A stretch of DNA of 64,000 bases from Orobanche coerulescens (lineage: Eukaryota > Streptophyta > Magnoliopsida > Lamiales > Orobanchaceae): the NCBI GenBank assembly GCA_033398695.1, contig CM065806.1, forward strand, positions 43,735,001-43,799,000, given 5' to 3'. Shown piece after piece: positions 19,831 through 47,280 of this stretch. The notes below the pieces were generated by a model that saw only the letters and a program-made list of their open reading frames with translations, ran no database searches and was not told the origin of the DNA. The first letter of the stretch is position 1; each line of letters starts with the position of its first letter. The translations under genes and the position numbers were made by a program.

Positions 19831-21179
19831 TCACTCAACGATTTATTTCGTCCCCTTACTTTCACTAAGAGAACAAAAACAAGGGGGAAGAGTGCAAAGC
19901 TATTTATACGATGATCATCCCTATTCAATTACATACGGAGATCGGCATTTTTCAGATGTTTGTGCAGCGATCGAATTTGTTGTAAAAGTTATCTATATGA
20001 GTTTATCAATTCACTTGGAGCTACACTCGCAACAATCTCTCCTCACACATTTGTACAAAGTCATGCAAAAACTCAGAAAAGCAATCATTCAAGTAATAAA
20101 TCGGAGAAACAAACATTCATTTCATTACTTGAAATATCGGAGTACATACACGGTCGCCCGAAGGCCTAAGTATTACAAAGAGAAAGCTACAAAATTACAA
20201 GGCAAAAAGCTAAAACAATAAGAATGAAGAGCCTCAGGCCCCTTCCTGGACTTCGCCTTCAACCTCCGGATCGGCCCGCGACCCTTCGCTAGCTTCCGGA
20301 GCGGCCTCCCCATCCTATGGAGCGTCAGGATGAACAATGTTCGCCAGAGTCGGATACCAGCTCAAGTCCACGCCGATGTCCGCGAGATCCAATATAGGCA
20401 CAGGGAAAGCAGGATGGAGAGGATGCTCCAACGCATATGCCTTGAAGTTTTCAGCAAGAGGTCCGACCTCTAACCCTCCCTTCTTAGCAGCTCAGAGTGA
20501 GTCAGCGAACGCCATATAATAGGAAAACTCACTGACGAACTCCACGTTAAGAAATGGATCGGCCTCGGTCACCTCTAGCTTCCCTTTCAGCTCCTCCATC
20601 GCCTATTGCGCACCTTGAAGCTCGGTCTCCTTAGCGACCGTCTCTCCCCTCGACGCCGCCAGCTCGCTAGTCAGCCGAGCGACAGTCACTTATACCTGCT
20701 CGACCTCCTTCTCAACAGCCGCGTGCAACCGTCGGGCATCTGTCATCTTGTCCCGATATCGGTCGATCGTCACCCGGGCTCGCTCATAATTCTCTCTCAT
20801 CAGCTCAAGGTCATGACTCGCCTACTTAGCTGCATCCAGGGAGTCCTTATCCATAGCCACAATCCTGTCGGCGAACTCGGCATTCTATTTTTGAGCCACC
20901 TCGAGATCCGCCTGCAGACGAGTAGTAGAAGGGTGCCCCTCGAATTCCTTCACAGCCTGGGCATCCATCGTCGCCGCCTGGAGAGAGAGAGCGAAAGCAT
21001 CCTACATTGTATTCCCGAATCGCTGGCGAGCGATCGCATCTATGTCCGTCGTCCAGGCCTTCAGCAAAGCAGAAAAGGCATGGTTGAGATACAGTGGGAC
21101 ATCGCAGGCCGTGCGAGGAGATCAGCTCGCAAGGAAATCAAGCACCATCGGCGGGCAAGCTGGGTTAGTGCTACGAATC

Positions 21180-21251
21180 CTGCATTGAGCAACAAAAAGT
21201 TAGCACATCTCCCACGCAAGTGGCGAAATTCAACAAACAAACAAAGTCTAC
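21180..21251 (-). other. Intron 3 of the D antisense gene
   Basis: 72 bases, donor AG|GTAGAC, acceptor CAATGCAG|GA. Reading through meets a stop immediately (at 21250-21248). Splicing restores a frame that runs, apart from point stops, to 20234. Confidence 0.72.
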
Positions 21252-21645
21252 CTCTCGTCTCTCTTGGGGTCGCGACCAAAGTATGGCTTCCCGCGAGGGA
21301 TCTCAGCCTCAGCGATCACCATCTCTCGCAAGAATGCCACAGAGGGCGTAGATTCATCCACCGGAGGGACCGTGGTGATCGGAGGCGCAGCGATCGGCAC
21401 CTCACTGGCAGGGGCAGAAACTGGAGATTCCTCCGACCTTTGCCGCTTGCGGTTCGATCGGAGCCCCTCCTCCCGAGTTTCCTCCCCCGCTATGATCGGC
21501 TCCACGACGGGCCTCACCTTCGGAATGAGAGGTAATGCCATCGGAGGAATCCGAGATGACTTCTTCTGGCGAAGACGGCTCAGAACTCCGGGGTTCGACA
21601 TGGCTATCTCCGCTGGAGGCTCCAAGAAATGAGGAAATCAAACTT

Positions 21646-21732
21646 CTGCAATAAAGAACGATCAAAAGACATTTAGACATATTCCTCCAACAGGACGATC
21701 GCCCAACAAATAGAGATCGTAGAAATTCATAC
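21646..21732 (-). other. Intron 2 of the D antisense gene
   Basis: 87 bases, donor CTAG|GTATGA, acceptor TATTGCAG|AA, with a T-rich tract before it. Splicing restores the frame, with a TGA a few codons into the next exon that looks like a point change. Confidence 0.62.
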
Positions 21733-21897
21733 CTAGGACCGAAAGATGTCTCGAGAAATGTAATAGCCGAGCAGACAGCCAACGACTCTCCTTGTTAATC
21801 CGGTGAGAATCAAAGTCGTCGTCCGGCAGACTTCGTATCCACTCCCAGACGACCAAAAAATCAAAAGGTAGCTCGTCGATCGTCGGAATATGGGAAC

Positions 21898-21966
21898 CTG
21901 CAAAAATGAAACCAAATTAGATCAGTTCATAACACATCCGAACAAAGGGAGAGTCAAAACCCTTAC
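21898..21966 (-). other. Intron 1 of the D antisense gene
   Basis: 69 bases, donor CGA|GTAAGG, acceptor TTTTTGCAG|GT. It is close to the lower size limit of plant introns. Splicing joins ERNP to SHIPTIDELPFDF, a sensible continuation, whereas the unspliced frame ends at a stop. Confidence 0.65.
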
Positions 21967-22768
21967 TCGGATTCCTTTCCCAGAAGCCTGTGGGAGTGCC
22001 CAGCTCGCCCATAGGATTGTCACTCGCTGAGGCCTTCCAGGCACCGGCGACCCAGAACCATTTCGTCGGATTGCCCCGCACCTTGTTCGGGACTTCTAGG
22101 ATCACCCGACCGGATTGAATGTGATAGCCTCCGACCGACCCTTTCTGAGCCGTCAGCTTGAATAGGTGGTTCATCTCAAACGGCGAAGGAAGGCGGTATA
22201 GTCGGTGACCGCCGAACAAGGTGAGAGAACAAATGATCTGGAGCCAGGCATTCGGCGTCAACTGAAGCGGCACCACGTTCCAAGCCGCCAGCAAATGGAA
22301 GACGGAAAAATACAGAGGGAACCACAACCCAGCCTCCATGATTGCTTCATTCACGGCGACCATACCCTATGGGGGTTGGTCGGCTCATTCATTCTCCGCC
22401 GGCGCAAAAAGATCCACATCTGAAGAGACATGATACCTCGTACTCCAGACGGCCAGGTCCTTCCTGGTCGCCGAGCTCCTTACCTGGCCAAGGGACCATA
22501 AAGATCACTGCGTAGCCCGAAACAGCGATCGCTTAGTAGGTTGATAAGGGTGAGCGATCGAGTAATCCCATTAATCGAACATAGGAGACGGACCGGCGAA
22601 TCTCTCCATGATTTCAGCGAAGGCCAAATAGGCCTGGCCAAAGGCACTATGCTACTCCCAATAGGCCCTCACCGCCGAATCTCTCTCCATCTGCGAGCGT
22701 CTTTGCTCAACCGCCGCCTCCCTGGCAACGTCGGCCTCATTAAATAGCACCTTGACTTCCGCGGGATC

Positions 22769-24839
22769 TATAATAATCGTACCTTTTATCGCTTATAATT
22801 ATGAATTCATGAACTTTGCAGTTTGGTTCGTAATTTTTTTCGAATATTGGTATCATGTGTTTGATTCGAGATTGAGCCTGTATGTTGTGTTTCTTGTTAG
22901 TATTCCGTTAATATCCGTTATTGCTGTGTCGAAACGCTTGTATCGCTTCTGCAACCCAGGATTAGCGTGCGCTAATTTATATGGGTAGCGTACGCAACGG
23001 AAGTTGTAGGCTAGCGCGCGCTACTACAAGAAGTTACGCACGCTAACCGGCAGCATAGGGCAGTCCAGAGAGCACTGGACTAGGACTAAAAATTTAGCTA
23101 GCGCATGCTAAGGCATCATAGTAGCGCACGCTAGGGGAACATGTAGCGCACGCCACTATTGGGTGATAATGCGCGTTAAGTGACCCGGACAGTAAGGACA
23201 GTGAGGTCTGGACTCTGGCCAGACGAGCAGGTAACGTGCGCTAAGACGGTCGTTGCATGCGCTAACTCGTCGGTCGTAGCGCACGCTATTCGGTCGTAAC
23301 GCATGCTACCGGTATGGACAGAAGGGTTTCTGAACAGGGTAGAAGGTTCTGGACTTAGACTAGACACCTGACAGCGCACGCTAACTCGATTGAGTAGCGC
23401 ACGCTATCGGATGTGGTGCACACCAGCTCGGCTGGGCAGAAGGGTTTGGGCTGGAGACCTAGGCCGATAGCGCGTGCTATTCGGTAAGCGTTAGCGCGCG
23501 CTAAGGCGCACTTATATAAATACATGTGTTTCGGTCAACACTTGTCATTTTTCATCTTCTCTCCTCTTCTTCGAGCTTCTAGACGACTCCAGGGCGGTGT
23601 AGGCGAGGGTTTCGGCGGAGCACGGTTAAAACTCAAATCTTTTCAACTTCAAGTAAAGATCTATCAATCTTACATCATCTTCACCAAGGAATTGAGGTAA
23701 TCCTTCCGTAGAACCCTAACTTTGGGGAAATTTAGGGATTTTGGGGATCTCGTTTCTCCAACTGTTTTAGCTCCAAATTATGATGGATTGTAGTTGAAAA
23801 TAGTAGTATAAGTATGATTTCATGATTTCCTCAAGGTTTTGTGGATTGATTCCAAATCTTCTTTTGTAAATCGAGCAAAACCCATTATGCCTCGTAATGC
23901 TCAATTAAATGGTCCTAAGGGTAGAACTTAGGATGGATTTTAGTGTTTTCCAACAAAATTGTAAATGATTAAGCCTCAATGTTTGTTAGGAGCGGGATTC
24001 GGAAGATAGTTCGGACCGTAGCCTTGTTCGTTGTTTGTTCCTTTGAGAGTAAGAAAGTCCAGGCAAGTACTTTATTGTATTAGTTTATGGCATGCATTTC
24101 TATGATGGTTTAGAGAATGATGAGAGTTGAAAGGTTATTCTCGGGTACTCTCACTCGGGGATTGACTCGACGGGGTCACATGGGGACCTGGTGGCTTAGC
24201 GGCTGGACCGGGTCACGAGAGATACTTTGAGTGGACATCCTCACCTGGGGATTGCTCGACGGGGCACACAGGGACTTGGTGGCTTGAGGGCCGGACCGGG
24301 TCGCGAGGATTGTCGGAGTGTTTTTACTGGTGATCGATAATGATATTCCAGAATATCGCGAATTGAACTGTTTTGGATTTTGAAATGATTTGGAAACTGC
24401 TTGTGGATTAAAATAATTGTAATACTGTACTTTCACTAGCGTTTGTGGCTAACCCCATTGTTGGGGTGGAATGTTTTGTACATTTCAGTCGAGGGACAGG
24501 AGCCCCCATGTGGCGCACACGAGGTCGACAAGCACACTGGATGTTAGAGAGCTCATATCAGTTGTTATATTTGTGATGTTTGAGTCAGTTTTATGTACTA
24601 TATTATGGTTGGTTTTGAGTTGTACTTTGTCGTGTAATGTTTGCGTTCAGTGATTGATGTTGAAGTATACTATTTTGGCCGCGGCCGAGGCCTAACTTGT
24701 GTTTTGTATCCTTTGTTGGACTGTTATGTCATGGTTATTATGTATTGGATTGTGGTTTAATCCTGTGTGCCGTCAGCCTGGCGGGACCTTTGTGTGTCCT
24801 GTGGCGTGCAATAACCCAAAGTGAAATTGGGGTGTTACA
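22769..24839 (+). repeat. 5' LTR of A
   Basis: 2071 bases. The first bases are TATAATAATC where the 3' LTR has TGTAATAATC, so the terminal TG has mutated. It ends GGTGTTACA. Between 22960 and 23515 there are at least 15 TAGCGCGCGCTA-like or TAGCGCACGCTA-like inverted repeats. About seven differences from the 3' LTR are seen in the first 225 bases by eye. Confidence 0.93.
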
Positions 24840-24843
24840 TTTA

Positions 24844-24856
24844 TGGTATCGGAGCC
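24844..24856 (+). other. Primer binding site of A (tRNA-iMet type)
   Basis: TGGTATCGGAGCC a few bases after the LTR end; one change from the iMet complement TGGTATCAGAGCC. Confidence 0.9.
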
Positions 24857-25076
24857 TAGGTTTCGGAAATACCTAGGCCTTTGTTTTTTCATTGTCAAGT
24901 CGTAAGAGTCGTATAAACTGATCGAGCTCAACACCATGTGTTGCTGTCGAGCCGTGTGACCCATGGTGGTAAGACTCCTTAACTCTCCTTGTGCCTTGTC
25001 GCTTTCCTAGTAGGGTAGATTTAAGTCCCTTGGATTATGAACTGTTCTGATAATTTTAATCCTTCTATATCTCAGT

Positions 25077-26210
25077 ATGTTGAGAGGCCGTGGTGGACGT
25101 GGCGGACGTGGACGCGGCAGAGGCCGTGGTCGTGGTACCGCTAACGAATTTGGCACACATTCTAATGATGCATCTGATTCGGCATCCCATACGGAGCCGA
25201 ACACCGCTTCTCTGAACCCGAGCGGTCAGCCAGATGCTACTGTAAGTCAAGAACCGTCGGCTGACACTAATGTGAATGCCGGCATAGCTGCTATACTCCA
25301 GCAGGTAGCAACACAATTAGTCAAATTGAATGAATCCGGGCATCATGATCAACCGACAGATGAGAGTAAATGGCTTCAGGGAGTGATGAAAATGCAACCT
25401 CCTCGTTTTACTGGTGCGTCTGATACATTGGGATGGGAAGGATGGTTGTTTCAGTTTGGCAGAATTTTTGACGCCCTTGCGTGCCCTGGAGAGATACGGG
25501 TCCCTATTGTACAGTATTTGCTTGACAAGGAGGCTGCGGATTGGTGGGAAGCTGCGAAACCTACGGATCGTGTGGCCACTTGGGCCGAGTTTAAAGTTGC
25601 GATAGAAGAAGAGTATTGCCCTTGGCCTATTAAAGAAAAACGAATTGCAGATTTCTTTACGACAACACCTCAAGATGTACCTGTCACCGAGGCCATTGTT
25701 ACGTATAATCAGCAACTGAATCATGTTCGTGAGCAAGTAAGGACCGAAGCGGATAAAATCCGTTACTTTGATTTGAGAATGAAGCCCAGGATTCGTGAGG
25801 CTATGGCACGTTTCAGATGCGTTACGTTGAAGGAATATCAGGATCGTGCTTTGGCTATCGAGATGGTCATTTCTGCGTCAAGGTCGGGTACCGAGATGAA
25901 GAAGTCGAAGACGACCGGTGGTTTTTCAGGAAGTAAGAGCGGTGGATTTCACAAATCTCAAGCTTTCACTCCGCTATCGGGAAATTTGTTCAGCAAGCCA
26001 GTAGTGATCCGAGTTTATGACCGGGCCAGTCTTCTGCCTTTGGTAGAGGACAATGTTTCAATTGTAATCAAACAGGCCATCAGTGTTGAGAGTGTACACT
26101 TCCTCCCATTATTTGTTTCACATGCGGTCAAGCCGTCCATCGGGCGGCTCATTGCGAGGCTTCCACCAGAATTGTTAAACAGCAGAATTCGGCACCAACT
26201 CCGAGTGTGA
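25077..26210 (+). pseudogene. gag of A
   Basis: The ATG at 25077 opens an Arg/Gly-rich start ([18 protein letters not shown]) and the capsid-like core (LDKEAADWWEAAKPTDRV, near 25520-25580). A frameshift between about 25990 and 26050 moves the zinc knuckles out of frame. In the shifted frame, 26054-26155 encodes CFNCNQTGHQC-stop-EC and CFTCGQAVHRAAHC, two CCHC knuckles with one stop in the first. The open frame shown is therefore the wrong one at its end. Confidence 0.87.
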
Positions 26211-26886
26211 ACCCGGGGACTACATCTAATCAGCCGCAACAAACTTTGGGACGTGGAAGAGGTCGAGGCCGGTTGGATCGTCAAGCTGCATCGAGTGTGG
26301 GTTCGGTACAGCCAAGAGTGTACCAGATGAGGCGTGCAGACGACACAGAGGCTCCGGTAGCTGTAGGTATCACGCAAATACTTTCTCAACCTGTATCGGT
26401 ATTATTTGATTTAGGAGCTACCCATTGGTTCATTGCTCTTGATTGTGTGAAATGTTTGGGTCTTGGGTGTTCGATTGAGTGCGAACCATTTGTAGTAAGT
26501 ACTCCTAGTGGAGAGCGTTTGATTGGGAACCAAGAGATTAAAAATTGTCTCGTGTATATCGGGAGTCGAGATTGGCCTTCAGACCTCATTGTGGTAGATC
26601 TGAAAGGAGAGGACGTAATCTGGGAGATGATTGGTTAAATCATCATGGTGCTATCATGAACTACCGAACGCGAACTATTTCTATAATAGCGGAAGATGGT
26701 GTCGAGCACACTTTCTTGGGTCGTAAACCGGGTAGTTCAGGTGGGGTGATTTCCGCCGTTAAGGCGATAAAATTGTTGAAACAAGACTGTATTGGTTATT
26801 GGTGTTACGCCATGAGCGCAAATGACGGTGAAGCCGATTTATTATCCATTCCAGTTGTGAATGAATACCTGATGTATTTAGGATGA
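26207..26886 (+). pseudogene. protease of A
   Basis: The catalytic motif near 26405-26430 reads FDLGATHWFI; the family has DTGATHSFI, so the Thr of the Asp-Thr-Gly triplet is Leu. A frameshift near 26620 links it to the next segment (GCWCYA-like linker, VISAVKAIKLLKQ). Confidence 0.83.
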
Positions 26887-26899
26887 CCTACCGGGATTA

Positions 26900-27560
26900 C
26901 CTCCGTCTAGAGAGGTAGAGTTTCCTATTGATCTTGTGCCAAGCGCAGCATCTGTTTCCCGAGCGCCGTATCGTATGGCACCCTCCGAGATGTTAGAACT
27001 GAAGAAACAATTGGGCGAGCTTCTGGATAAAGGGTACATCCGACCTAGTGCATCACCTTGGGGTGCGCCGGTCCTCTTCGTTAAGAAGAAGGACGGATCG
27101 TTCCGTCTATGCATTGATTATCGGGAATTGAATAAGTTAACTATTAGGAACAAATATCCTTTACCTCGGATAGATGATTTGTTCGACCAACTTCAGGGTG
27201 CCACAGTATTCTCTAAAATTGACTTGCGATCGGGATATTACCAGCTGAGGATTCGGGATTCTGACATTCCAAAGACTGCCTTCCGTACTCGGTACGGTCA
27301 TTACGAATTTGTGGTTATGCCATTTAGCCTAACCAACGCTCTTGCCGTGTTTATGCAGTTGATGAACAAAGTTTTCATTGACTATCTTGATAAATTTGTG
27401 GTCGTTTTCATTGATGATATTCTTGTCTACTCCCGGAATGAGGAGATCATGCTGAACGTCTCCGAATGGTGTTGAACACTTTGAGAATGGAGAAACTTTA
27501 TGCTAAATTCTCAAAGTGCGAATTCTGGCTTAAAGAGGTGACATTTCTTGGTCATGTAAT
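26900..27560 (+). pseudogene. reverse transcriptase of A
   Basis: [32 protein letters not shown] and [10 protein letters not shown] (about 27407-27437) are intact RT motifs. The linking segment between 26880 and 26936 and the end after 27475 are frameshifted. RNA-templated DNA synthesis is the family role. Confidence 0.9.
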
Positions 27561-27564
27561 TTAG

Positions 27565-28137
27565 GTTGATGGAGTTCGAGTGGATCCCCAAAAGATAGCG
27601 GCCATTGTTGAGTGGGAACCCCCTAGGAATGTGAAGGAGACCAGGAGCTTTCTAGGGCTTGCTGGATATTATCGCAGATTCGTCGAAGGATTTTCAAATA
27701 TCGCTCGACCACTTACTCAATTGCTACGGAAATCTCAGAAATTCGAGTGGACGGATGAGAGGCAAAACAGTTTTGATGAGCTTAAACGACGATTAACTTC
27801 GGCGCCCGTGTTATCGTTACCTCAGGGCACCGATGATTACGAGGTGTATAGTGATGCTTTCGGACTTGGATTGGGTTGTGTTTTGATGCAGAGAGGTAGA
27901 GTAATTTCATATGCGTCCCGATAATTGAAACCATATGAAATGAATTACCCTACCCATGATTTAGAGTTATCGGCAATTGTATTCGCGCTAAAAATTTGGA
28001 GGCATTATCTTTATGGTTCTCCGTGTAAAATCTACACGGATCACAAAAGTCTAAAATATATATTTAGCCAAAAGGAGCTAAATATGATACAACGTCGATG
28101 GTTGGAGCTGATTAAGGATTACGATCTTAAAATATAA
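27565..28137 (+). pseudogene. RNase H of A
   Basis: [32 protein letters not shown], then after a stop at 27922-27924 (CGATAATTG, where the family reads SRQLKPYE) [21 protein letters not shown] and [11 protein letters not shown]. The single TAA in this spot looks like a CAA-to-TAA change. Confidence 0.87.
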
Positions 28138-28139
28138 TA

Positions 28140-29748
28140 TCATCTAGGAAAAGCTAATGTGGTAGCGGACGCATTAAGTCGGAAACCCGTAGCCCTCCAA
28201 ATGCTGAGTATGCTTACATCTCAACACGAGATCCGTCGAGACATAATTAGGCAAGATATAGAGATTTGGCTTCAGAAAGTTCAAGGCCAATTATGTACTT
28301 TGGAGATCACGTCGTCTTTGATCAACGAAGTCAAGTCGAAGCAATTTGAGGATCCATTACTAGTCCAGCTAAGAAAGGATGTGATGAGAGGAAAAGCTCC
28401 AGGATTTATGATTCAAGATGATGGTGTTTTAAGGTTTAGAGGTAGACTTTGTATACCTGCAGACGTCGAGCTTAAGCAGACCATATTGAGGGAAGCGCAG
28501 ACTACACCGTGTTCTCTTCACCCCGGTACAAGCAAAATGTATAAGGACGTGAAGAATAACTATTGGTGGAGCAATATGAAGAATGATGTTGAAGAGTTCG
28601 TGTCGAAATGCTTGACGTGTCAACAAGTCAAGGTTGAACATCAACGGCCAGCAGGGTTGCTTAAATCGCTACCAATCCCAGAATGGAAATGGGAGGATAT
28701 AACGATGGATTTTGTCACCAATATGTCGAGTACGCGAATAGGGATGAACATGATTTGGGTTATTGTCGATCGACTAACCAAGTCAGCTCACTTTCTGGGA
28801 ATTAAGGATAATTGGGGGCCCGAGAAACTAGCTCGTGTATTCATCGCGGAAATTGTAAGGTTACACGGGACTCCTAAGAGCATTATTTCCAATCGAGACG
28901 GTAGATTTGTGTCGCACTTTTGGCAATCCGTTCACCAAGATTTAGGGACGGAACTGAGGCTTAGTACATCGTACCATCCTCAGACTGATGGGCAGTCTGA
29001 ACAGACAATTCAGGCCCTTGAGGACATGCTGCGAGCATGTGCCCTAAATTGGAAGCATGACTGGGAATCGCACTTGCCACTAATTGACTTTGCCTACAAT
29101 AATAGTTGGCATGCGTCGATTAAGATGGCACCGTTTGAGGATCTATATGGACGGAAATGTAAGTCACCATTGTGTTGGGATGATTCCTCTGAACTGATTG
29201 GGACGGAGCCGGATATGTTAGTGGAGACCCGGGAAAAGATCTCTTTGATTCGCGAGAGGTTTTTGGCCGCCCAAAGCCGACAGAAGTCCTATGCCGATAA
29301 TCGACGTCGACCACTAGAGTTTGAAGTCGGCGATCATGTGTTGATAAAAGTATCGCCAACCCGGGGAGTTTATCGCTTTGGGAAGAAGGGTAAACTCAGT
29401 CCGAGATATGTTGGGCCATACGAGATTATAGAACGAATTGGCGAACTTGGTTACCGTGTGGGCCTTCCACCTTCACTAGGTCATGTGCATAATGTATTTC
29501 ATGTTTCGCAGTTGAGGAAATACGTACCAGACCCTAAGCATATCATATATTTTGGAGAGATTGAATTGAATTCCGATATCACCTTTGAGGAAAAACCAAT
29601 CCAGATTTTGGAGCGTCGGGTGAAACAACTTAAGCGTAAAGTTATCCCCTTGGTCAAAGTACAATGGTCGAGGCATAGATCGGAAGAAGCCACGTGGGAG
29701 ACAGAAGAGCATATGAAGTCTAGATACCCCGAATTATTCACTTCGTAA
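28140..29748 (+). pseudogene. integrase with C-terminal chromodomain-like tail, A
   Basis: A long open part (28159-29748, 529 codons). The zinc finger is present (LHPG, then CLTCQQVK). The core has ITMDFVT, IISNRDGRF and HPQTDGQSEQT. The second catalytic Asp (SDRD) is Asn here. GPYEIIERIGELGYRV and VHNVFHVSQLRKYVPDP follow. The tail, ILERRVKQLKRKVIPLVKV then EEATWETEEHMK, matches the chromodomain-like end of Tekay/Del elements. One stop separates it from RNase H. Confidence 0.9.
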
Positions 29749-29767
29749 GTTTCGGGACGAAACTTAT

Positions 29768-29783
29768 TCTTAGGGGGAGAGAA
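29768..29783 (+). other. Polypurine tract of A
   Basis: TTAGGGGGAGAGAA stands directly before the 3' LTR (29784). Confidence 0.85.
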
Positions 29784-30008
29784 TGTAATAATCGTACCTT
29801 TTATCGCTTATAATTATGAATTCATGAACTTTGTAGTTTGGTTCGTAATTTTTTTCGAATATTGGTATCATGTGTTTGATTCGAGATTGAGCCTGTATGT
29901 TGTGTTTCTTGTTAGTATTCCGTTAATATCCGTTATCGTTGTGTCGAACTGCTTGTATCGCTTCTGCAACCCAGGATTAGCGTGCTCTAATTTATATGGG
30001 TAGCGTAC

Positions 30009-31130: not shown

Positions 31131-31150
31131 TTCTCCCCCGCCCATTTCGT
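31131..31150 (-). other. Polypurine tract of B
   Basis: On the minus strand GGGCGGGGGAGAA immediately precedes the 3' LTR. Confidence 0.85.
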
Positions 31151-33940: not shown

Positions 33941-33957
33941 TACACCCCCCCTTAAAA
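33941..33957 (-). other. Polypurine tract of C
   Basis: On the minus strand TTTTAAGGGGGGGTGTA leads into the 3' LTR. Confidence 0.82.
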
Positions 33958-33989
33958 GAGTTTCGTCCCCGAAACTAAGGGTCAAACAA

Positions 33990-36018: not shown

Positions 36019-38677
36019 ACCGCCGATAATAACCAGCTAATCCGAGAAAGCTTCGGATTTCCTTAACATATTTCGGGGGTAACCAATCTCGGATAGCCTC
36101 CGTCTTCTGAGGGTCGACATGACCTCCCTCAGATGAAATTACATGTCTAAGATACGTCACTTCAGACATCCAGAACTCACACTTGGAAAACTTTCCATAA
36201 AGTTGCTCTCGTCTTAACACGTCGAGAACCTGATGAAGATGAACCTCGTGTTCCTCTCGGTTACGAGAATAAATCAAAATGTCATCGATGAAGACAATAA
36301 CAAACTGATCCAAAAAGTCGATGAAAACCTGATTCATTAACTCCATGAACACTGCAGGTGCATTAGTCAATCCAAACGGCATAACCACAAACTCATAATG
36401 ACCATAGCGTGTTCGAAACGCCGTCCTCGCGATATCCAACTCTCGGATCCGCAACTGATGATATCCAGATCTTAAGTCGATCTTGGAAAATACTGAAGCT
36501 CCCTGAAGTTGATCCAAAAGATCATCGATACGGGGTAAAGGATACTTATTTTTTATCGTCACCCGGTTCAATTCCCGGTAATCAATACACAAGCGGAACG
36601 AACCATCCTTCTTCTTGACAAACAACACTGGTGCTCCCCAAGGGGACGCACTCAGTCGGATATAACCTTTCTCGAACAATTCCTCAAGTTGATTCTTCAA
36701 CTCCTGCATTTCGGTCGGGGCCATCCGGTACGGTGCCTTTGATATCGGGGACGTACCGGGCTCCAACTCAATCGTGAATTCCACATCTCTCTGTGGAGGA
36801 AAACCAGGTAACTCGTTTGGAAATACATCAGCATATTCCCTCACGACCGGAATATCCGCCAACATTATTGGTGACTTCTCGGTTTTGGTCATAAAGCACC
36901 AATAACCAACACACCCCTGATTGAGTAACCTCATCGCTTTCATCAAATTAATGACCTTACCAGAAAAGCCGGGATTACCTCCCTGAAACACACATTCGAC
37001 CCCATCGTCTGATATGATAGTGACCATATGCTTACGGACACTAATGATGGCATCATGACGATCCATCCAATCAATACCCAAGATGACGTCGTGTCTCGGC
37101 AAATCTACTACGATTAGGTCCACTGGCCATACACGGCCATGAAGCTGAATCGGACAATTCTGAATCTCACGATTTCCGATAATTCGTCTACCATCAGGTA
37201 GACCAATGACAAAAGGCTCACAACTAGCAGCACTACCCAGACGTAGTCTACTCAAACATGACTCGGAAATGAATGAATGCGATGCACCAGTATCAAAAAG
37301 GGTACACACAGGTTGAGATAGGATATCGAGTGTACCTGAGATCATTCGGGCCCCTGGATCGTCGGTCCTCTTCATCTCATAAATTGGGAGCTTGCCGGCC
37401 CCCGAACCAGACGCTCCCGTCTGATAGCTCTTGGCTCCGCCTTTGTTAAATCCTATCGTCTTGAACGACGCTGACTGAGTGGCCTGATTCTGCACCGCTG
37501 AATGTCCTAGGTCCTGAGATGACGCCGAAATGGGTTTAGAGTCCCTTCGGCAAAAACGGGCCCTATGCCCAGCAATTCCACAGTTATGACATATGACAGC
37601 CTGTTTTGGACATTTGGTGCTGAAATGACCCTGTTCTTCACAGTTGAAACAGGTGACAACCGAACTGGCCGCTCGCGACTGGGATTCCGTGGGTTTAGGC
37701 GCCTTAGGAGGTCGCTCAGAAAAGGTAGAGCCCGCACGTGGTTTCTTGAAATTGGCCTGACTGCCGTCAGACTGATTACGGTTCTTGGACTTCTTGCTAG
37801 CACATGAAGGTTGCTGCTTAGCAATCTCCTTAGCAGTAAGCTCATAGGTAAGAGCTTTCTCAATAAATTCCGCCAAAGTGGTGCAATGATGATTAAGCAG
37901 CTGAAGTCTCATACGGGGTTTCAGCCTCTTACTGAAATACTTGATTTTGTCCGCCTCTGAATGAATGATGGATGAGGCGAAAGGAAGAAGTTCCTGAAAT
38001 TTCTCGGCGATGGCAAGAACATCATCATCCGCTGAAGGGTCGGGAGTGAGTAATTCCGACAATTTAGCCTCCCTGAGTGGGGCTGGATAATACCTCTCCA
38101 TCATGAGAGTTTTGAACTGATCCCAAGTACAAGATCCTTCGGTGGGCTTCAACGACAACCACCAAGAATGTGCGCTCTTACCCAGGTAGTAAGCCGCAAC
38201 TGAAACTTTGTGTCCTTCGGGACACTCTACCATAGCAAACAACTTCTCGAAATGTTCGAGCCAATGAATAATATCCGCCGGCTCAGATGAGCCTTCAAAA
38301 GTAGGTGGCCTCTGACGAGAGATGTCGCCGATGATACTGCTCACATTCCTCTCTTGCCTCTGAGGTGGCGGCGAACGAGCCTGTTGATTTTGATTGACTG
38401 AGTTATGCATCGTCTCTATCAGCTGTGCCATCTGGGTCATTTGGGCCATCATGCCCTGCATAAAACCGAGTGGGTCAACCCGAACACCTTCTGACTGAGC
38501 GGTGCCCCGGGTACGACTCCCAGATAGTGAATGATCACGTCCAGGCGAATGAGTGGCAGCGTCGCTGCCTGATGAATTAACATTATTCCTTGCATTCACA
38601 CGTGTATTCATACGAGCTCTCGGGATTCGGCCTGCACCACGGCCTCGTCCTCCGCGTCCTCTTCTTGCTCTCTCCAT
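35960..38677 (-). CDS. gag-protease-RT polyprotein of C
   Basis: A 905-codon open frame. The N-terminus is Arg/Gly-rich ([17 protein letters not shown]). The capsid-like core has [16 protein letters not shown]. Two knuckles ([14 protein letters not shown] and [14 protein letters not shown]) lie near residues 340-375. The protease DTGASHSF is intact (near residue 460). RT has [16 protein letters not shown] and [10 protein letters not shown] (36261-36294). The frame then passes into the RNase H connection and breaks by frameshift near 35990-36010, 6-20 codons after RRFVEGF. It would make particles, process them and copy RNA; downstream functions need another frame. Confidence 0.92.
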
Positions 38678-38704
38678 ACTGAAGTAGGAAAGTCACATGA
38701 TGAT

Positions 38705-40662
38705 TGTTAGGAGTATGCCCTCGAATGCCACTCAGAGGTTGTTGAGTGAGGGCATTGTACTTGTAATTATGTAAACCATTTATATAAGGCAAATGAATGT
38801 TTCTTTAATTACTGGTAGTTACTGGCATTCCTAACTCGTAAATAAAAATATAGAAACTAGTCCGTGTATTTGAGAGCAAAACGTTCCATTCCTTATTGGA
38901 TAAGGGGGTCGGCACTGGAAAGGTTTATAGCTCAAATACTTAATCGTTCGCAAGTCGATGAAACTTGACCGGGCGTTAAATTTATGTGAAGACTTGTATG
39001 ACGTGTTCTTTGACATGGAGAGTGCCTGTCGAACACTAATGGTTAGTGGGAGCACACGTTATAGGTATGCTAATTAGATTAGTATACTCGAACCGACTCA
39101 CCCTCGATTCGTCACACGGATTTCACTCCGGATACCAATGACGGAATCGAAAGGTTGTGATAGGTATTCGTGAACCTTCAACTTGAGGATTTAGTAGGGA
39201 TGTGCTTGTGACGTCAAGATTTTCATTAGAGTAGTTCGACCCTGTAAACCGGAAGGCGAGGGTCAACCTCGACGTGCATCTTGACGGGCAAGTAGCAGGT
39301 CCTACTGAATACCAAGATAGAATTCTTTCTCCTGTTAGTGAACGGGTTATATGTCCTATGCGGTTATTGGCAGATGAGATCATAAGTCTTTGGCCAAAGC
39401 ATTGGAGCTAGCTGTATTAGATACATGAGAGCTCGATGATCTCGATTTGCATTAACGCATAGCGTCAAGTACAGATAGGGTTTGACTGACCGTAACCCTA
39501 TAACTTGATCGGGACATTTGAAAGAAGGGTTTATACGTATACTGGTATTCACGAAAGAATGGTTCTTGAATGATCCCATCATTCGTTCTCAGTTGGGGTA
39601 CAGTGTAGGCCGCCAGGCTGGCTAGGTGGTGCTACTACTCTTTGGTTCCTCCCATTGCTGACTGAGACGAACCTACCGAGTCGCGCAATAGGATTGACAA
39701 CAGAATGAATCAAGCTAATTCTCTCATTATGAATATTAGATATTAGATATCTAAATTTGGGACATTGGATGTTTAAATCGATTTATCGGATAAATTGATT
39801 TACGGCTTAATGAATTAAATATATCACTGGGTGATTAATTTAATTCATGAATATAATTATTTCTTGGAGAAATTAATTATGTTATTTTGTATTTGATATG
39901 TTTAATAAATTGGATTAATTAATCGATACAAATACATCGGAACGGAATCGTAATTTATCTGTTTGGACTCACGGGAGTCCGAAACGAACCGAACTCGTCC
40001 GTTTTTGCATAGTAGCCGCCCCCCCTTTGTTTCCACTCACTTTCCTCTTGTCTTGTTGCTTTCATTTTATATGAAAGAACGTGACATTGTGGGGTTTAAA
40101 ATAATGTGGCATTATTTGTATTATTGAAGTGAGAGTTGAATAAAGGGAAGAAGACATCTCATTTCACATGCACCTTTTGATTCCTTGTGTGATTTCCTAC
40201 GTGAGTTTGAGTTTGAAAGAGAGAGAAAAGTTCTTTTTCAAAGTCTTCTTCTTCATCTCATTTCTTGAGAGTTTTTCTTAGGAAAATATCATAACATAAA
40301 GAGAGAGTAAGATTAAAACACTCAGAGTGTAATAATCTTAACATACAAAGCTTCATCACTTAATTCTAGCCGTAACCTTAGAGGTTAATTAAGTAATCGT
40401 TGTTCCGGTCGTTTCTCCGGCGCGTGGCAAGTAGAGACGCGGTGCTTTCGGCGTTGGATCGTTCAAGAGCTTGGGGAATAGCTCAAGAGAAGGTTATCCA
40501 TTTAATAAACGGACTACAAGGGTATGTTTCTCGTATCTCTTGTATTTCGTTTTTGATATTCGTATATAAGTAGCTCGATCGATCCTCGTAGGGATTCGGA
40601 TCGAATTAATTTTCGTTTTACCGCTTCCGCTGGGCCTTCGATTTAGGCACCGAATCCCAGCA
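38705..40662. repeat. Solo LTR L in the leader of C
   Basis: 1958 bases, TGTTAGGAGT to GAATCCCAGCA, flanked by ATGAT (38700-38704 and 40663-40667). There is no coding content, and no second copy or primer site was found. TG...CA ends and a 5-bp duplication fit a solo LTR, likely of a copia type (TGTTAGG start). The strand is not certain; the ends suggest it reads plus. Confidence 0.85.
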
Positions 40663-40677
40663 ATGATTATATTCCCC

Positions 40678-41117
40678 GCATGAATATCACGTTATGATTA
40701 TGACATGAGATGATGAAAATGAGCATACACGCTCTAACACAGTGATTATATGAATGATTAACTGAGGTGACATGATTATTTGATGAAATTCTTGAAATGA
40801 TTATCTTGAACAAGTTAACAAGATTAATGATATGATCTTCCTGATCAACAACTGAGTAATGAAATTAATTGAGTGATTAACGAGTTAACATGACCGTCCT
40901 GGTCAAAATGAAAATGATGATTGAGGATTGTTAACTGATGAAATATGAATGAATGATTATTGCCAGAAATTATACCATGGCGTTAGAAATCTTACAGTTC
41001 TTGGTCTGATTGGCTCGGCATTTACACAGGTCACACGTGATGCGAAAGTCCAATGATACTAGTCCGATGACGATGATTTCAAATGAGACATGACTCGGAA
41101 GGTAGTATTCAAAACCA
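40678..41117 (-). other. Untranslated leader of C
   Basis: About 440 bases between the primer site and the solo LTR, rich in ATGA and GATTA repeats, with no frame of interest. With 38678-38699 it forms C's leader before the gag ATG. Confidence 0.7.
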
Positions 41118-41130
41118 CGCTCCGATACCA
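41118..41130 (-). other. Primer binding site of C (tRNA-iMet type)
   Basis: On the minus strand TGGTATCGGAGCG, four bases past the LTR edge at 41135; same variant as in G. Confidence 0.88.
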
Positions 41131-41134
41131 ACTC

Positions 41135-42653
41135 TGTAACACCCCAAACTAGGCGGATATTACAGTGTTGTGGACCCCCGACTGGGACCCACTAGGCGAA
41201 TGAAAATGAATGAATTACACAGGGTAAATGTAGTACCGAACCACATTACAACAATAATTACTCCGATGAGGAGTTTCTTACAACACATCCAGGATAATAC
41301 AGAATACATGTATATTTTATATGGAGATAAAATATACAACACTGAGTGAAATGAGTGTTCAAACGGAATGTCTGCAGCGGAATAAATGAAGGAAACATAA
41401 ATGACTGGGGCCCCCTTCTAGTATCATTGGGACTCCTCGCCGTCAACGTGCTCTCCCCATGCTTTCGCCTTGCCATGACCTGAAAAACAATATCCCCCAA
41501 CGGGGTCAGTTACACAGAACAACAATCCTCAAGGGTTGAAAATACACAATCATGATATGTTGTATAAACCACAAGTTCGATCAAAAATGAATCGGTTAGA
41601 TTATAACCCAATCTTGTTGAAAACATACGCAATCAAACATGATGTATGAATCAACTAACCGTACGGCTCAAAGGGTGGCGCCGCACTACGCCCGGGATGG
41701 AAATGTGTCCATGCATAAGCCACCAACGAGTATCGATCGAATACACATGTGGTATTGTACCTAATCAGTCTCACGAAGCAATCGACTCGTGTGCACAGTC
41801 TAATGTGAGGCCAACAACCAACACACGACTTAAATGTGCCCGACATGAAAATCCTACACATACCAACCGGCACGCCAGTGTGACCTGGAATGCCACGATA
41901 TAACAAAGTGACATCGAAAATGAATAATGACTCACCGAGGTGAAATGATAGTGAAATGAATGACACCTCAATGAAATGATTGGAACCGTCGTTCCTTGTG
42001 ACTGAGGTGATTAATTGACAATGACAAGTTTTGATACGGTTAATACAATGATGAATGAGTTATGATTATGAATGAACAACAACAAAAGGAATGAATATCC
42101 TTTTAACCGAGTAAGAATTAACTTACACAACACCGGTGACAATTATCCTTCCACGAACGACGTCCTAATTGAGATATCGATCGCTCGAACAACCTTGAAT
42201 AATACAATGACCAACAATTCGTTCAAAATACGAATCAAACACGAATATAACGAACTCAAAACGTCGATACGATTAAACCAAGTTCATTGGGGCATTATAT
42301 CGAACACTTTGAGGCCAACTTCGATTGTTAACAACCCAACCTTGATTAAACCAACATCAAAACCCAAAAAGTGTTTTCAATCCAACAAAACATGATTTGA
42401 ATAATGAAGAGATTTGAAATGACATGAATACCAACGTCAACATCGACTAATGAATCAATTACCACAATCAAGATAATACCTTGTCTCGATTCCCGAATAA
42501 GGTTGAAACAATGAAAAATATCGATACACAACTCGAAGTTATACCGAACGGTGAACACGGACGAATGATTATTAACAAGTGAAAGATTACATAGTGACAA
42601 TCACCGAATGAAATTACTGAATGATAATGACTAAATTACAACCGGGTATTACA
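41135..42653 (-). repeat. 5' LTR of C
   Basis: 1519 bases; nearly identical to 32411-33940. Confidence 0.95.
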
Positions 42654-43090
42654 TCCCCGATGCACCAAAGTAACGCTCCATGTTCCACAGGAAGTCATCC
42701 ACTTCCCTACCATTCCGCGATCCTTGGAACGAACACGGCCGGGGGATGTCGATTCGATGGGGTGCCGCACCCCGCTGGTCCCTGCCGTGGGCCATCGCCC
42801 GCTCGTACAGTGTTGTCCTTCCTTCGATGGTCTCGATCCTCCAAATGATCAGCCACTCTGATCCATGCCTCAAGAGCATCCTCGTGTCTACCCATGGTTT
42901 CCTCTAGCCGAGCCACTCGTGCTTCCATGGCAACACCTCTTTCCACGGACTTGTCCCTAGACCCTTTCCTGGACTTGTCCTTCTCCTGGCCGGGTTGAAC
43001 TTTGGTGACGCTGGACGTAGTCTCCATCGGTCCTCCTTGCACAAAACCTCTCAGCAACGTCTCAATGCAGAAGTTCCTTGAACCACTAGC

Positions 43091-43105
43091 GTGGCTCTGA
43101 TACCA
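43091..43105 (-). other. Primer binding site of B (tRNA-iMet)
   Basis: On the minus strand TGGTATCAGAGCCAC, a full match to the common plant iMet site, two bases past the 5' LTR. Confidence 0.93.
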
Positions 43106-43107
43106 CT

Positions 43108-44247
43108 TGTCACGGGGTTGGGTTTGAGCACTCGAAAGCTCCTCGAACCCATACGGCACTAGACTAGAATTGCCTCGATCTAGCTAGTAAGCCTTAACTC
43201 ACTGGGTTTCTAAGTGTGTAAGAAGGGGTTTAAACACTTGGGAGTTGAGAGTAAAACAATTCACTATTTCACAAACACTTCACAATATAGGAATGTTGAG
43301 TCTTTTGAGGGTTGGTTTTCAAATGAGCCTCCCCCTTGCCTATTTATACAACTCCTAGGATCTAGAATCTTCTACTTCACCTCCTCATTTGGAGGACTCT
43401 AGAACATCCTATACATTCCACATACTTCTATCCTATTCTAGAACCTATCTCTAGAATCATCCACACTTGTCTACATATACAAGTCTAGAGTATTCTACAA
43501 GTACAAGACATACAATCATCTAAAATACTCTATATCATTCCAGCACTGCATCCTTCTAGGGGTTTCCTAGAGGCTTCTCTTCCATCCCGGGCGCTCGGCC
43601 CGTCTCTGTCCATCCCGGCCCGCATCGGCCCGTCCTGGCCCGCACCGGCCCGTCTCGGCCCTGACTATCTGGGCCCGTATCTGCAATGTTCCAGACTCTT
43701 CCTGAACCTCCTGGACCAAGCCGGTCCGCTTCTAGTTGCTTCCAGTCGAGTCTTGCCTGCTGAATGACTCCTCAGCTTTTCAATGTCTACTGCCCCCGCA
43801 AGGCTTTTTCCGTCTAAGCCTATTATAGGGGGAAGGGTCCCTCTCGCACCTCGCGCGCGCGCGCCTGCGCACGCCGGCCGCGTCCGGCATCCCACGCCCG
43901 CGTCCGGCCGCCCAGCTCGAGTCCTGTTCCCAGACTCGGCCTTGTCCCGTCGTGCCTTGTCCCACACGGCCCCTGCTCGTCCGGCCTTGCCCGCGCCCCC
44001 TGCGCTGCCGGATAGTCCCGAACATGTCCAGTCCGGAATTCCCCTTGGGCGATCCGCTTCCCACAGCCGCGTCCGTGCTCCTCCCACGGCTTACTCGCGT
44101 GATTCTCCATCCGATCATGCCGTCCTGAAGGCTGACTCTTCACATGCAGCCCGATGCCATCCATGGCGTCCTGCTCGTGCCGGTCCCTCGGCACCCTGTG
44201 CGACCATCTGCGCACACATGTCTCGTTGTCGACTTTCGGCCGTTACA
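43108..44247 (-). repeat. 5' LTR of B
   Basis: 1140 bases. The outer end reads CCGTTACA (the left copy has CCGTGACA). The same CGGCCCG and CG-alternating stretches are present. The ATGs on the plus strand here (such as 43783-44304) are chance GC-rich frames. Confidence 0.92.
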
Positions 44248-46383
44248 GTACGCAACGGAAGTTGTAGGCTAGCGCGCGCTACTACAAGAAGTTACGCACG
44301 CTAACCGGCAGCATGGGGAAGTCCAGAGAGCACTTGATTGGGACTAAAAATCGAGCTAGCGCACGCTAAGGCATCATAGTAGCGCACGCTAGGGGAACAT
44401 GTAGAGCACGCCACTGTTGGGTGATAACGCGCGCTAAGTGACCCGGACAGTAAGGACAGTGAGGTCTGGACTCTGGCCAGACGAACAGGTAACGTGCACT
44501 AAGACGGTCGTTGTGTGCGCTAACTCGTCGGTCGTAGCGCACGCTATTCGGTCGTAACGCACGCTACCGGTATGGACAGAAGGGTTTCTGAACAGGGCAG
44601 AATGTTCTGGACTTAGATTGGACACCTGACAGCGCACGCTAACTCGATTGAGTAGCGCACGCTATCGGATGTGGTGCACATCAGCTCGGCTGGGTAGAAG
44701 GGTCTGGGTTGCAGACCTAGGCCGATAGCGCGCGCTATTCGGTAAGCGTTAGCGCGCGCTAAGGCGCACTTATATAAATACATGTGTTTCGATCAACACT
44801 TGTCATTTTTCATCTTCTCTCCTCTTCTTCGAGCTTCTAGACGACTCCAGGGCGGTGTAGGCGAGGGTTTCGGCGGAGCACGGTTAAAACTCAAATCTTT
44901 TCAACTTCAAGTAAAGATCTATCAATCTTACATCATCTTCACCAAGGAATTGAGGTAATCCTTCCGTAGAACCCTAACTTTGGGGAAATTTGGGGATTTT
45001 GGGGATCTCGTTTCTCCAACTGTTTTAGCTCTAAATTATGATGGATTGTAGTTGAAAATAGTTGTATAAGTATGATTTCATGATTTCCTCAAGGTTTTGT
45101 GGATTGATTCCAAATCTTCTTTTGTAAATCGAGCAAAACCCATTATGCCTCGTAGTGCTCAATTAAATGGTCCTAAGGGTAGAACTTACGATGGATTTTA
45201 GTGTTTTCCAACAAAATTGTAAACGATTAAGCCTCAATGTTTGTTAGGAGCGGGATTCGGAAGATAGTTCGGACCGTAGCCTTGTTCGTTGTTTGTTCAT
45301 TTGAGAGTAAGAAAGTCCAGGCAAGTACTTTATTGAATTAGTTTGTGGCATGCATTTCTGTGATGGTTTAGAGAATGATGAGAGTTGAAAGGTTATTCTC
45401 GGGTACTCTCACTCGGGGATTGACTCGACGGGGTCACACGGAGACCTGGTGGCTTAGCGGCTGGACCGGGTCACGAGAGATACTTTGAGTGGACATCCTC
45501 ACCTGGGGATTGCTCGACGGGGCACACAGGGACTTGGTGGCTTGAGGGCCGGACCGGGTCGCGAGGATTGTCGGAGTGTTTTTACTGGTGATCGATAATG
45601 ATATTCCGGAATATCGCGAATTGAACTGTTTTGGATTTTGAAATGATTTGGAAATGCCTGTGGATTAAAATAATTGTAATACTGTACTTGCACTAGCGGT
45701 TGTGGCTAACCCCATTGTTGGGGTGGAATATTTTGTACATTTCAGGTATTCTCGAGGGACAGGAGCCCCCATATGGCACACACGGAGTCAACAAGCACAC
45801 TGGATGTTAGAGAACTCGCATCAGTTGTTATATTTGTGATGTTTGAGTCAGTTTTATGTACTATATTATGGTTGGTTTTGAGTTGTACTTTGTCGTGTAA
45901 TGTTTGCGTTCAGTGATTGATGTTGAAGTATACTATTTTGGCCGCGGCCGAGGCCTAACTTGTGTTTTGTATCCTTTGTAGCACCGTTATGTCATGGTTA
46001 TTATGTATTGGATTGTGGTTTAATCATGTGTGCCGTCAGCCTGGCGGGACCTTTGTGTGTCCTGTGGCGTGTAATAACCCAAAGTGAAATTGGGGTGTTA
46101 CAGGATCAATACCGACATGGATAGCTTCGGCGGCCGTCTCCATATGGAATCCCACGGAGGGTCCTTCCCGGACATTGGAAGCCCCATTGGCGGAGGTGGT
46201 GCCCTTTCCGTGCGAAGAAGATGTTCCAGACATTCTCGAAACAAGAAGAGGAGAAAGGGAGTGTTTTCTTACCAAGGGTTAAGTCGATCAACGATCGGCA
46301 GTTAGATCTTCAGAAAAAGTCTTCAGCAAAATCCTTATTTCTCCGGTAAAAGCGCATAAGGGTCTTAACACTGCAACCCAGCG

Positions 46384-46396
46384 CCTTTTTATAGGA
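46384..46396 (-). promoter_or_regulatory. TATA box for the D antisense gene
   Basis: On the minus strand this reads CTATAAAAAGG, about 150 bases before the ATG at 46233 and inside D between the gene and the 3' LTR. It is a good plant TATA consensus. A leader with no upstream ATG close to the start codon fits promoter use; this is inference. Confidence 0.6.
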
Positions 46397-46753: not shown

Positions 46754-47280
46754 TGTTGTGCGGTGATTTATACGCCTCGACGGCGATCGATAACAAGGTC
46801 GAGCGACCGAGTCCACGACCAAAGGAGCTATGGCGAGCTTGCCTAAACAGAGATAACGGTCCACCTTCGAGTATCTAGCGACCGACTCTCAAGGCGATCG
46901 CCTTTGGCACCTAGCGATCGACTTTGGTGCCCGACCCAGGACGACCATATTGTGCCCCTAACAAGACCTTCGTCCGTCAAAGTCTACGAAGATTGGGTCT
47001 CAAAGCAGCGCCCATGTGCAGATCCGCGAAAGGCGCCGCAGAACATGTATCGTTGACCACAGCATGTCACCACCTTCTCAGCTACCGACAGACCCGCCGA
47101 AAGGTACAAGGTGGGACCACCCGTGACAGCAACTCAGACGCATGCAGACTTCTCATTGACCGCACAGCTGGCTGCCAGCAACTCCTGCGGACATTAAGGA
47201 GACCATCCCATGTGCTAAAAGACGATCCCCCGCTTATTATATTACAGCAAAGGCGATCGCCCAATATCTCCCAGTCCTAT
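46754..47280 (+). repeat. 3' LTR of D, truncated by E
   Basis: It matches the 5' LTR from its first base up to CCCAGTCCTAT, where the LTR of E begins. The remaining 600 bases are not in the window. The GCGATCGC palindromes are shared. Confidence 0.88.

What the first reader, a model, noticed from the sequence alone, without database searches (positions are those of the whole stretch)
20234..46233. Antisense gene with its own promoter, introns and 3' end inside a pol-less retrotransposon
Seen: on the minus strand, a TATA box (CTATAAAAAGG, 46386-46396), an ATG at 46233, three GT-AG introns (21898-21966, 21646-21732, 21180-21251), and exons that total exactly 811 codons, with the frame kept across all three joins and across the A insertion. 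Sequence after the stop is U-rich like a plant 3' UTR. Known: Tat-branch elements carry antisense extra ORFs, and the PF04195 family occurs in plants. Inferred: the introns survive because the genomic RNA is transcribed in the other direction and does not splice them. This would be a gene carried by an element without pol, perhaps helping or controlling it.
Basis: partly seen in the sequence, partly recalled or inferred. Interest (0 to 1): 0.88.

Follow-up and report, generated by a model that had tools for sequence, protein, structure and literature searches.

The report
Intron-bearing antisense gene in pol-less retrotransposons
A family of broomrape jumping elements that lack their own copying enzymes still carries, on the opposite strand, a separate gene with three introns that evolution has maintained as a protein, although the copy in this window is dead.

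Summary
The finding's coordinates and arithmetic hold: TATA box, ATG, three GT-AG introns, 811 codons, frame kept across the nested insertion.

At family level the reading is largely right. In the same 3.65-Gb genome 39 further copies were listed (the best-scoring few of many candidates); all keep the intron lengths. In 14 sampled copies the TATA box is always present, the ATG in 13, the splice sites nearly always; one copy's spliced frame is open in the part compared. Differences shared among copies show purifying selection (N/S 0.36 of expectation), private ones much less (0.77). A predicted Orobanche hederae protein aligns gap-free across all three joins, and 80 of 87 genome matches to it break at the first join. 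Five of five D-lineage elements examined lack pol, including one about 20% diverged.

Antisense "transposase-28" genes in Tat/Retand elements, one with its own promoter (Grande), are known. Apparently new: conserved introns, presumably kept because they lie antisense to the genomic RNA, and a long-lived pol-less lineage that keeps gag and this gene, both under constraint (gag somewhat more). Transcription, splicing and function are untested.

The parts
15926..17042 (+). 5' LTR of the host element D (3' end approximate; TATAAATAG at about 16448; PBS-like TGGCGC from about 17045)
17167..18699 (+). gag of D (PF03732), no stops in this copy
18893..19409 (+). two direct repeats of about 255 bp (78% identical) between gag and the antisense gene; no significant similarity to six pol pieces in 18700-20233 (best E 0.66)
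46386..46396 (-). TATA box of the antisense gene; CTATAAAA present in 14 of 14 sampled other copies
46103..46233 (-). 5' part of exon 1 of the antisense gene, ATG at 46233 (ATG in 13 of 14 sampled other copies)
22769..46102 (.). nested element E1 (LTRs 22771-24839 and 29786-30008 + 44248-46102) that splits the antisense gene; 5-bp duplication GATCC at 46103-46107 and 22764-22768; E1 itself is interrupted by E2 (30009-44247), which holds E3 (32410-42654)
21967..22763 (-). rest of exon 1, with the PF04195-like region
21898..21966 (-). intron 1, 69 nt, phase 1, in-frame stop in 15 of 15 copies
21733..21897 (-). exon 2
21646..21732 (-). intron 2, 87 nt, phase 1, in-frame stop in 15 of 15 copies
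21252..21645 (-). exon 3, with a basic RKRQR stretch that looks like a nuclear localisation signal (judged by eye)
21180..21251 (-). intron 3, 72 nt, phase 2, in-frame stop in 15 of 15 copies
20234..21179 (-). exon 4, coiled-coil-like by eye (only non-significant Pfam hits); terminal TGA in 14 of 15 copies
20134..20233 (-). T-rich 3' flank with a TTGTAATTTTGTAG-like motif, with several small indels among copies
46754..47280 (+). 3' LTR of D, cut off at 47280 by sequence starting TGTAATACCC; 92% identical to the 5' LTR over 529 bp

Best explanation
D is one decayed copy of a long-lived Tat/Retand-like LTR retrotransposon lineage in Orobanche (probably O. coerulescens) that has gag but no pol. 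On the strand opposite gag, just inside the 3' LTR, it carries a separate gene with its own TATA promoter, three short introns and a 3' end, encoding a protein of about 810 residues: an N-terminal transposase-28-like region, a basic nuclear-signal-like stretch and a C-terminal part that looks like a coiled coil.

Inferred mechanism: the LTR-driven genomic RNA carries the introns in the unspliceable orientation, so they pass through reverse transcription, while the antisense mRNA from the internal promoter is spliced. Each intron holds an in-frame stop, so only spliced mRNA gives full-length protein. Reverse transcriptase and integrase come from another element. Gag and the antisense protein are kept by selection, most simply because they act mainly on the element that encodes them. 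The protein is probably a nuclear, element-specific factor acting on the element's DNA or transcription.

Shown: anatomy, intron conservation, absence of pol in the copies read, purifying selection. Inferred: transcription, splicing, nuclear location, element-specific action.
For: Copies: 39 other places match at 86-90% identity, 34 of 39 over at least 2497 of 2530 nt; the span differs from the query's by -11 to +29 nt in all 39, all of which cover the three introns, so none of these is missing. Splice sites in 15 copies: intron 1 GT 14/15, AG 15/15; intron 2 GT 15/15, AG 13/15; intron 3 15/15 and 15/15; lengths fixed but for one of 70.

Selection: informative sites by codon position 105/84/209, singletons 201/164/231 (Fisher p=2e-5); N/S relative to expectation 0.36 for shared and 0.77 for private differences. 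Between diverged lineages third and second positions differ 0.30/0.11 (D-L047), 0.29/0.12 (D-L048) and 0.38/0.11 (L047-L048); in the gag core D and L049, the same element as L048, give 0.37/0.11.

Joins: gap-free alignment to O. hederae P0001; 80 of 87 scored genome matches break at join 1.

No pol: L043, L044 and L045 match D from LTR to antisense gene without extra sequence where pol would be (L043 has a short deletion); L049, 73-80% identical, is pol-less as well; no pol similarity in D's gap. D gag is related to gags near other antisense PF04195 genes here.
Against: No RNA evidence. P0001 and its relatives are Helixer predictions (PMC13192451, passage), so they do not prove splicing. PF04195 is below its cut-off in D and in every relative that matches it. 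Conservation of the GT/AG letters alone is weak, because intron sites are 62% constant anyway. In three relatives introns 1 and 2 diverge no more than exons and only intron 3 sometimes more (0.18, 0.33, 0.21), so the introns are not plainly neutral. Both genome searches score only the best candidates, so copies without introns could be missed by the DNA search. The structure model was uninformative (pLDDT 35.9). An autonomous pol donor was not identified: the LTR search did not complete.
Confidence: 0.66

Rival explanations
1. The functional product is the antisense RNA (siRNA source or regulator of genomic RNA), and the reading frame is incidental.
For: Authors of PMC7264820 raise dsRNA-based regulation for such genes (text read). 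Introns 1 and 2 are as conserved as exons.
Against: Codon-position bias and N/S 0.36 at shared sites; third positions differ 0.29-0.38 and second 0.11-0.12 between diverged lineages.
Confidence: 0.12
2. The antisense frame is a dead passenger copied along with gag; nothing selects for it.
For: D has 14 stops, 13 of 14 sampled copies have at least one, 5 of 14 have frameshifts, and single-base indels (6 events) outnumber in-frame ones.
Against: Private changes look nearer to neutral than shared ones (0.77 against 0.36), as expected for decay after insertion of copies made from working sources. One of 14 copies has an open frame in the part compared.
Confidence: 0.08
3. The introns are an artefact: frame slips read as introns, or segments that are read through.
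For: All three lengths in D are divisible by three, and 3 of 87 genome matches run through the first join.
Against: Every intron carries an in-frame stop in 15 of 15 copies; the three run-through matches also contain stops, and the two of them that were fetched hold intron 1; zero-gap protein alignment at all joins; a divergent family shows frame switches across T-rich GT-AG gaps, the first 77 nt long, not divisible by three.
Confidence: 0.04
4. The pol-less lineage keeps the gene because it interferes with or hijacks autonomous relatives, not because it helps its own transposition.
For: Gag and the antisense gene, not pol, are what is kept.
Against: In two other families here (L017, L025) an ORF with reverse transcriptase lies in the fetched stretch, on the strand opposite a PF04195 gene that appears intron-split, so the gene does not seem special to pol-less elements; that RT and gene belong to one element is inferred from position.
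Confidence: 0.1

Closest known systems
Retand/Tat elements with antisense TRP28 (PF04195) ORFs (Vicient 2025, PMC11963269; abstract, first part of Results, Discussion and passages seen)
   Same: Antisense ORF between the sense genes and the 3' LTR with a TRP28-type domain; LTR length in range; some clusters are non-autonomous (e.g. Alopecurus clusters 2 and 3b listed without RH and INT).
   Different: The word intron does not occur in that main text. D has no pol, its domain match is below the Pfam cut-off, and the gene is split into four exons.
Maize Grande gene23 (Gomez-Orte et al. 2013; known to me only through PMC7264820, two of three parts read)
   Same: Antisense gene near the 3' LTR, transcribed from its own promoter, nuclear protein.
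   Different: Grande elements carry pol as far as I recall; whether gene23 has introns could not be checked (paper not held).
TR-GAG non-autonomous elements (search listing only; definition recalled)
   Same: LTRs and gag without pol.
   Different: D has an additional antisense gene under purifying selection.
Ogre and EVADE introns (PMC12786077 and PMC6317226, passages)
   Same: Plant LTR elements with introns.
   Different: Those introns belong to the element's own sense transcripts; here they are antisense to the genomic RNA.

Membership tests
Pfam PF04195 (Transposase_28) | Score at or above the gathering cut-off of 26.2 bits | tested here: not met
   19.9 bits in D; 17.7-20.8 in P0001-P0003, 19.1 in Acer P0009, no hit in P0004, P0005, P0007 and P0008. 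Another family in the genome passes at 36.1 bits (L021).
Tat/Retand lineage of Ty3/gypsy | Reverse transcriptase phylogeny | not testable with these tools
   D has no pol.
Tat/Retand lineage of Ty3/gypsy | Antisense TRP28-type ORF between the sense genes and the 3' LTR | tested here: inconclusive
   Position and orientation met; domain match below cut-off.
Tat/Retand lineage of Ty3/gypsy | gag related to gags near antisense PF04195 genes of other families | tested here: met
   tblastn of D gag against 20 loci: hits in L022, L024, L009 and L023, E 2e-13 to 7e-5; L012 also hit (E 4e-98) but at the locus edge, upstream of its PF04195 gene, so not counted.
Tat/Retand lineage of Ty3/gypsy | LTR length 315-1194 bp (survey range in PMC11963269) | tested here: met
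   about 1117 bp, 3' end approximate.
Tat/Retand lineage of Ty3/gypsy | Tandem arrays of three or more repeats before the 3' LTR (in about half of survey elements) | tested here: not met
   Two direct copies of 150 bp or more in the self-comparison; TRF found no array. Copies give extra partial matches in this stretch.
TR-GAG (recalled definition) | LTRs plus gag, no pol | tested here: met
Grande gene23-type antisense gene | Transcription from its own promoter | not testable with these tools
   Only the TATA box was tested: present in 14 of 14 sampled other copies.

The most novel reading that the evidence does not exclude
A retrotransposon lineage that discarded pol long ago keeps exactly two genes, gag and an intron-bearing antisense gene, because both products must come from the element itself. 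The antisense protein would then be a third indispensable, element-specific function of Tat elements (for example loading, import or targeting of the element's own nucleic acid), and the antisense introns a built-in strand filter that makes its mRNA usable only as mRNA and never as genome.
Probability: 0.28. Interest if true: 0.75.

Novelty: new variant of a known kind. Interest (0 to 1): 0.56.

Why it matters
Antisense genes in Tat elements have been known for years without a function. A lineage that has shed pol but kept gag and the antisense gene under selection sorts what another element can supply from what it apparently cannot, so it makes the role of the antisense protein testable. Conserved introns in an element that moves through RNA are unusual; their antisense orientation gives a simple reason and a clear prediction for strand-specific RNA. 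It also warns that annotation by single open reading frames can miss or truncate such genes.

Tried and rejected
Rejected: that the window's own gene is intact (14 stops). Rejected: that stops shared between copies prove transposition of dead genes; shared stops sit mostly at CGA or other cytosine hot spots and the copies are all 7-13% apart. Rejected: strand-biased hypermutation of D; private C>T 13 and G>A 15 (two of the 14 other copies have a bias at p<0.05, in opposite directions, uncorrected). Withdrawn on recheck: that indels in the exons are mostly multiples of three (6 single-base events against 3 others), and that the antisense gene is as constrained as gag (third to second position 2.4 for D-L048 against 3.4 in the gag core for the same pair of elements); the probability of the novel case was lowered slightly for that. 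Led nowhere: AlphaFold model of P0001 (pLDDT 35.9; no fold search was made). The first 20 fetched PF04195 stretches (L009-L028) are other families with weak similarity to D, but served as a second test of introns. An autonomous partner was sought by LTR search, never answered. The gag-region search also did not complete, nor the search with 46103-46752. Literature: no paper describing introns in antisense genes of these elements was found in the listings, nor in the passages; Gomez-Orte 2013 and, by a recalled identifier, Steinbauerova 2011 were not held, so prior description cannot be excluded. The 14 control genomes showed no PF04195 hit.
Full report
WHAT WAS CLAIMED AND WHAT IS THERE. The finding describes a minus-strand gene from 46233 to 20234 inside element D, split by a nested insertion. 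The sequence bears out the details: TATA box at 46386-46396, ATG at 46233, three GT...AG segments of 69, 87 and 72 nt, a 5-bp duplication GATCC around the nested element at 22769-46102, and a total of 2433 nt or 811 codons when the duplication is counted once. The other frames of the same spliced piece have 29 and 36, so this is a decayed gene, not an open one. The Pfam match to PF04195 is below that family's cut-off (19.9 against 26.2 bits).

THE HOST ELEMENT. D has a 5' LTR of about 1.1 kb (15926 to about 17042, with TATAAATAG near 16448 and a PBS-like TGGCGC just after it), gag at 17167-18699 (PF03732), a stretch with two direct repeats of about 255 bp, the antisense gene, and a 3' LTR from 46754 that is cut off at 47280. 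The two LTRs are 92% identical over 529 bp. Six pol pieces from other elements gave no significant match between gag and the antisense gene (best E 0.66).

OTHER COPIES. The window lies in a 3.65-Gb genome, contig 6. That size equals the assembly size given for Orobanche coerulescens in PMC13192451 (passages), and 11 of the 12 protein relatives found are from Orobanche, the twelfth a weak hit in Acer, so I take the species to be O. coerulescens by inference. A DNA search scored 40 of 9,554 candidates and listed 39 other places at 86-90% identity; 34 of 39 cover at least 2497 of 2530 nt, all 39 cover the three introns, and the span differs from the query's by -11 to +29 nt, so none of the 39 has lost an intron. 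Copies that had lost introns would score lower, so they are not excluded. I fetched 14 of the 39, chosen by hand. In these, CTATAAAA is present in 14 of 14 and the ATG in 13 of 14; with D counted the terminal TGA is present in 14 of 15. Splice sites: intron 1 GT in 14 of 15 and AG in 15 of 15; intron 2 GT in 15 of 15 and AG in 13 of 15; intron 3 both in 15 of 15; lengths are fixed except one of 70. Every intron holds an in-frame stop in 15 of 15 copies. Premature stops in the part compared (from codon 45 on) number 0 to 9 per copy, 14 in D; 5 of 14 copies have frameshifts; one of 14 has neither stop nor frameshift there.

SELECTION. No ancestor or consensus was built. Sites where at least two copies share each state were compared with sites where one copy differs. 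Shared differences fall at codon positions 105, 84 and 209; private ones at 201, 164 and 231 (Fisher p=2e-5). Relative to expectation, the nonsynonymous-to-synonymous ratio is 0.36 for shared and 0.77 for private differences; nonsense changes are at 0.63 and 1.11. This is what decay after insertion from selected sources looks like, though private changes are also below 1. Recurrent changes at cytosine hot spots blur the contrast. Between diverged lineages third and second positions differ 0.30/0.11 (D-L047), 0.29/0.12 (D-L048) and 0.38/0.11 (L047-L048). The gag core (17653-18345 only) gives 0.37/0.11 for D against L049, which is the gag side of the L048 element. So both genes are constrained, gag somewhat more.

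INTRONS ARE GENE STRUCTURE. The predicted O. hederae protein P0001 aligns to the spliced D frame at 46% identity with no gap at any of the three joins. In a whole-genome search with P0001 (87 of 32,272 candidates scored), 80 of 87 first pieces end at residues 175-181 (84 within 175-188), and every second piece in the truncated listing starts at 362-367; the joins are at 176 and 363. The remaining 3 of 87 run past the first join and contain stops; two of the three were fetched (L046, L047) and hold intron 1. Here an intron-less gene would have scored best, and none appeared at the top. P0001 comes from Helixer predictions (passage), so splicing itself is not shown. GT/AG conservation alone would be weak evidence, since intron sites are 62% constant among copies. 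In three fetched relatives introns 1 and 2 differ no more than exons; intron 3 differs 0.18, 0.33 and 0.21; one relative has lost part of intron 2 with the start of exon 3, and another has an altered intron-3 acceptor. Another PF04195 family in this genome (nine copies against L021) shows codon periodicity that changes frame across T-rich gaps: intron 1, 77 nt, has GT in 10 of 10 and AG in 9 of 10; intron 2, 81 nt, GT in 7 of 8 and AG in 7 of 7 copies aligned there. Reading L019, L025 and L026 in three frames suggests the same in a third family (by eye). ORFs with reverse transcriptase lie in the fetched stretches L017 and L025, and one with integrase in L025 (nine ORFs scanned). So introns are probably not a peculiarity of the pol-less family.

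POL-LESS AND LONG-LIVED. For 3 of the 14 sampled copies I also fetched the gag side; all 3 match D from LTR to antisense gene without pol, one with a short deletion in gag. One diverged relative, 73-80% identical in the aligned pieces, is pol-less as well, with part of the gag end missing. With D that is 5 of 5 examined. D's gag is related to gags in 4 of 20 other PF04195 stretches here. An autonomous partner was not found because the search with the LTR did not complete.

HOW IT MOST LIKELY WORKS. Two transcription units face each other. The LTR-driven RNA is the genome; in it the introns read CT...AC and cannot be spliced, so they are copied. The internal TATA promoter near the 3' LTR drives the mRNA of the antisense gene, whose introns are removed. 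Since each intron has an in-frame stop, only spliced RNA gives the full protein. Pol enzymes come from elsewhere. That gag and the antisense gene are both kept suggests that their products act mainly on the element that made them. A basic RKRQR-like stretch recurs in homologs (RKRRR in P0001, P0004 and P0006, alignment) and exon 4 looks like a coiled coil, though its Pfam hits are not significant (E 0.4 and 0.95); with the nuclear location reported for Grande GENE23 (PMC7264820) this points to a nuclear role. Transcription, splicing and function are inferred.

WHAT IS KNOWN. PMC7264820 (two of three parts read) reviews antisense genes in Grande, RIRE2, Retand and others, reports that Grande gene23 is transcribed from its own promoter and that its protein is nuclear, and asks for work on antisense and spliced transcripts. 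PMC11963269 (abstract, first part of Results, Discussion, passages) reports TRP28 antisense ORFs in 97% of Retand clusters, some of them non-autonomous, and proposes DNA binding; the word intron does not occur in its main text. PMC12786077 (passages) says plant LTR elements generally lack introns, with Ogre and EVADE as exceptions. The primary Grande paper is not held, so I cannot exclude that introns were described there.

VERDICT. Real at family level, dead in this copy. A new variant of a known kind: conserved antisense introns, and a pol-less lineage that keeps gag and the antisense gene under selection.

Noticed in passing
window 17167-18699 and 20234-22763: In D the gag frame has no stops while the antisense gene has 14; three other copies have 1, 5 and 1 stops in gag. 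D's private changes in the antisense region show no strand bias.
   Followed up: partly
L009-L028: At least three further PF04195 families in this genome (A: L009, L010, L012-L016; B: L011, L017, L018, L020-L024, L027, L028; C: L019, L025, L026). B, and by eye C, appear to have intron-split antisense genes; ORFs with RT (L017, L025) and integrase (L025) were found.
   Followed up: partly
window 4870-5222 and 6239-6589: A direct repeat pair 92% identical about 1 kb apart, like the ends of a small LTR element; related sequence also lies next to the LTR of a D relative in L049.
   Followed up: no
window 52113-53329 and 62786-64000: Direct repeat of about 1.2 kb, 96.9% identical, probably the LTRs of another element reaching the window end.
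   Followed up: no
window 47281: The 3' LTR of D is cut off and followed by TGTAATACCCGG, which looks like the start of another element; no match of 150 bp or more to the rest of the LTR showed in the window's self-comparison.
   Followed up: partly
window 22769-46102: Three-level nest: E1 in D, E2 in the 3' LTR of E1, E3 in E2.
   Followed up: partly
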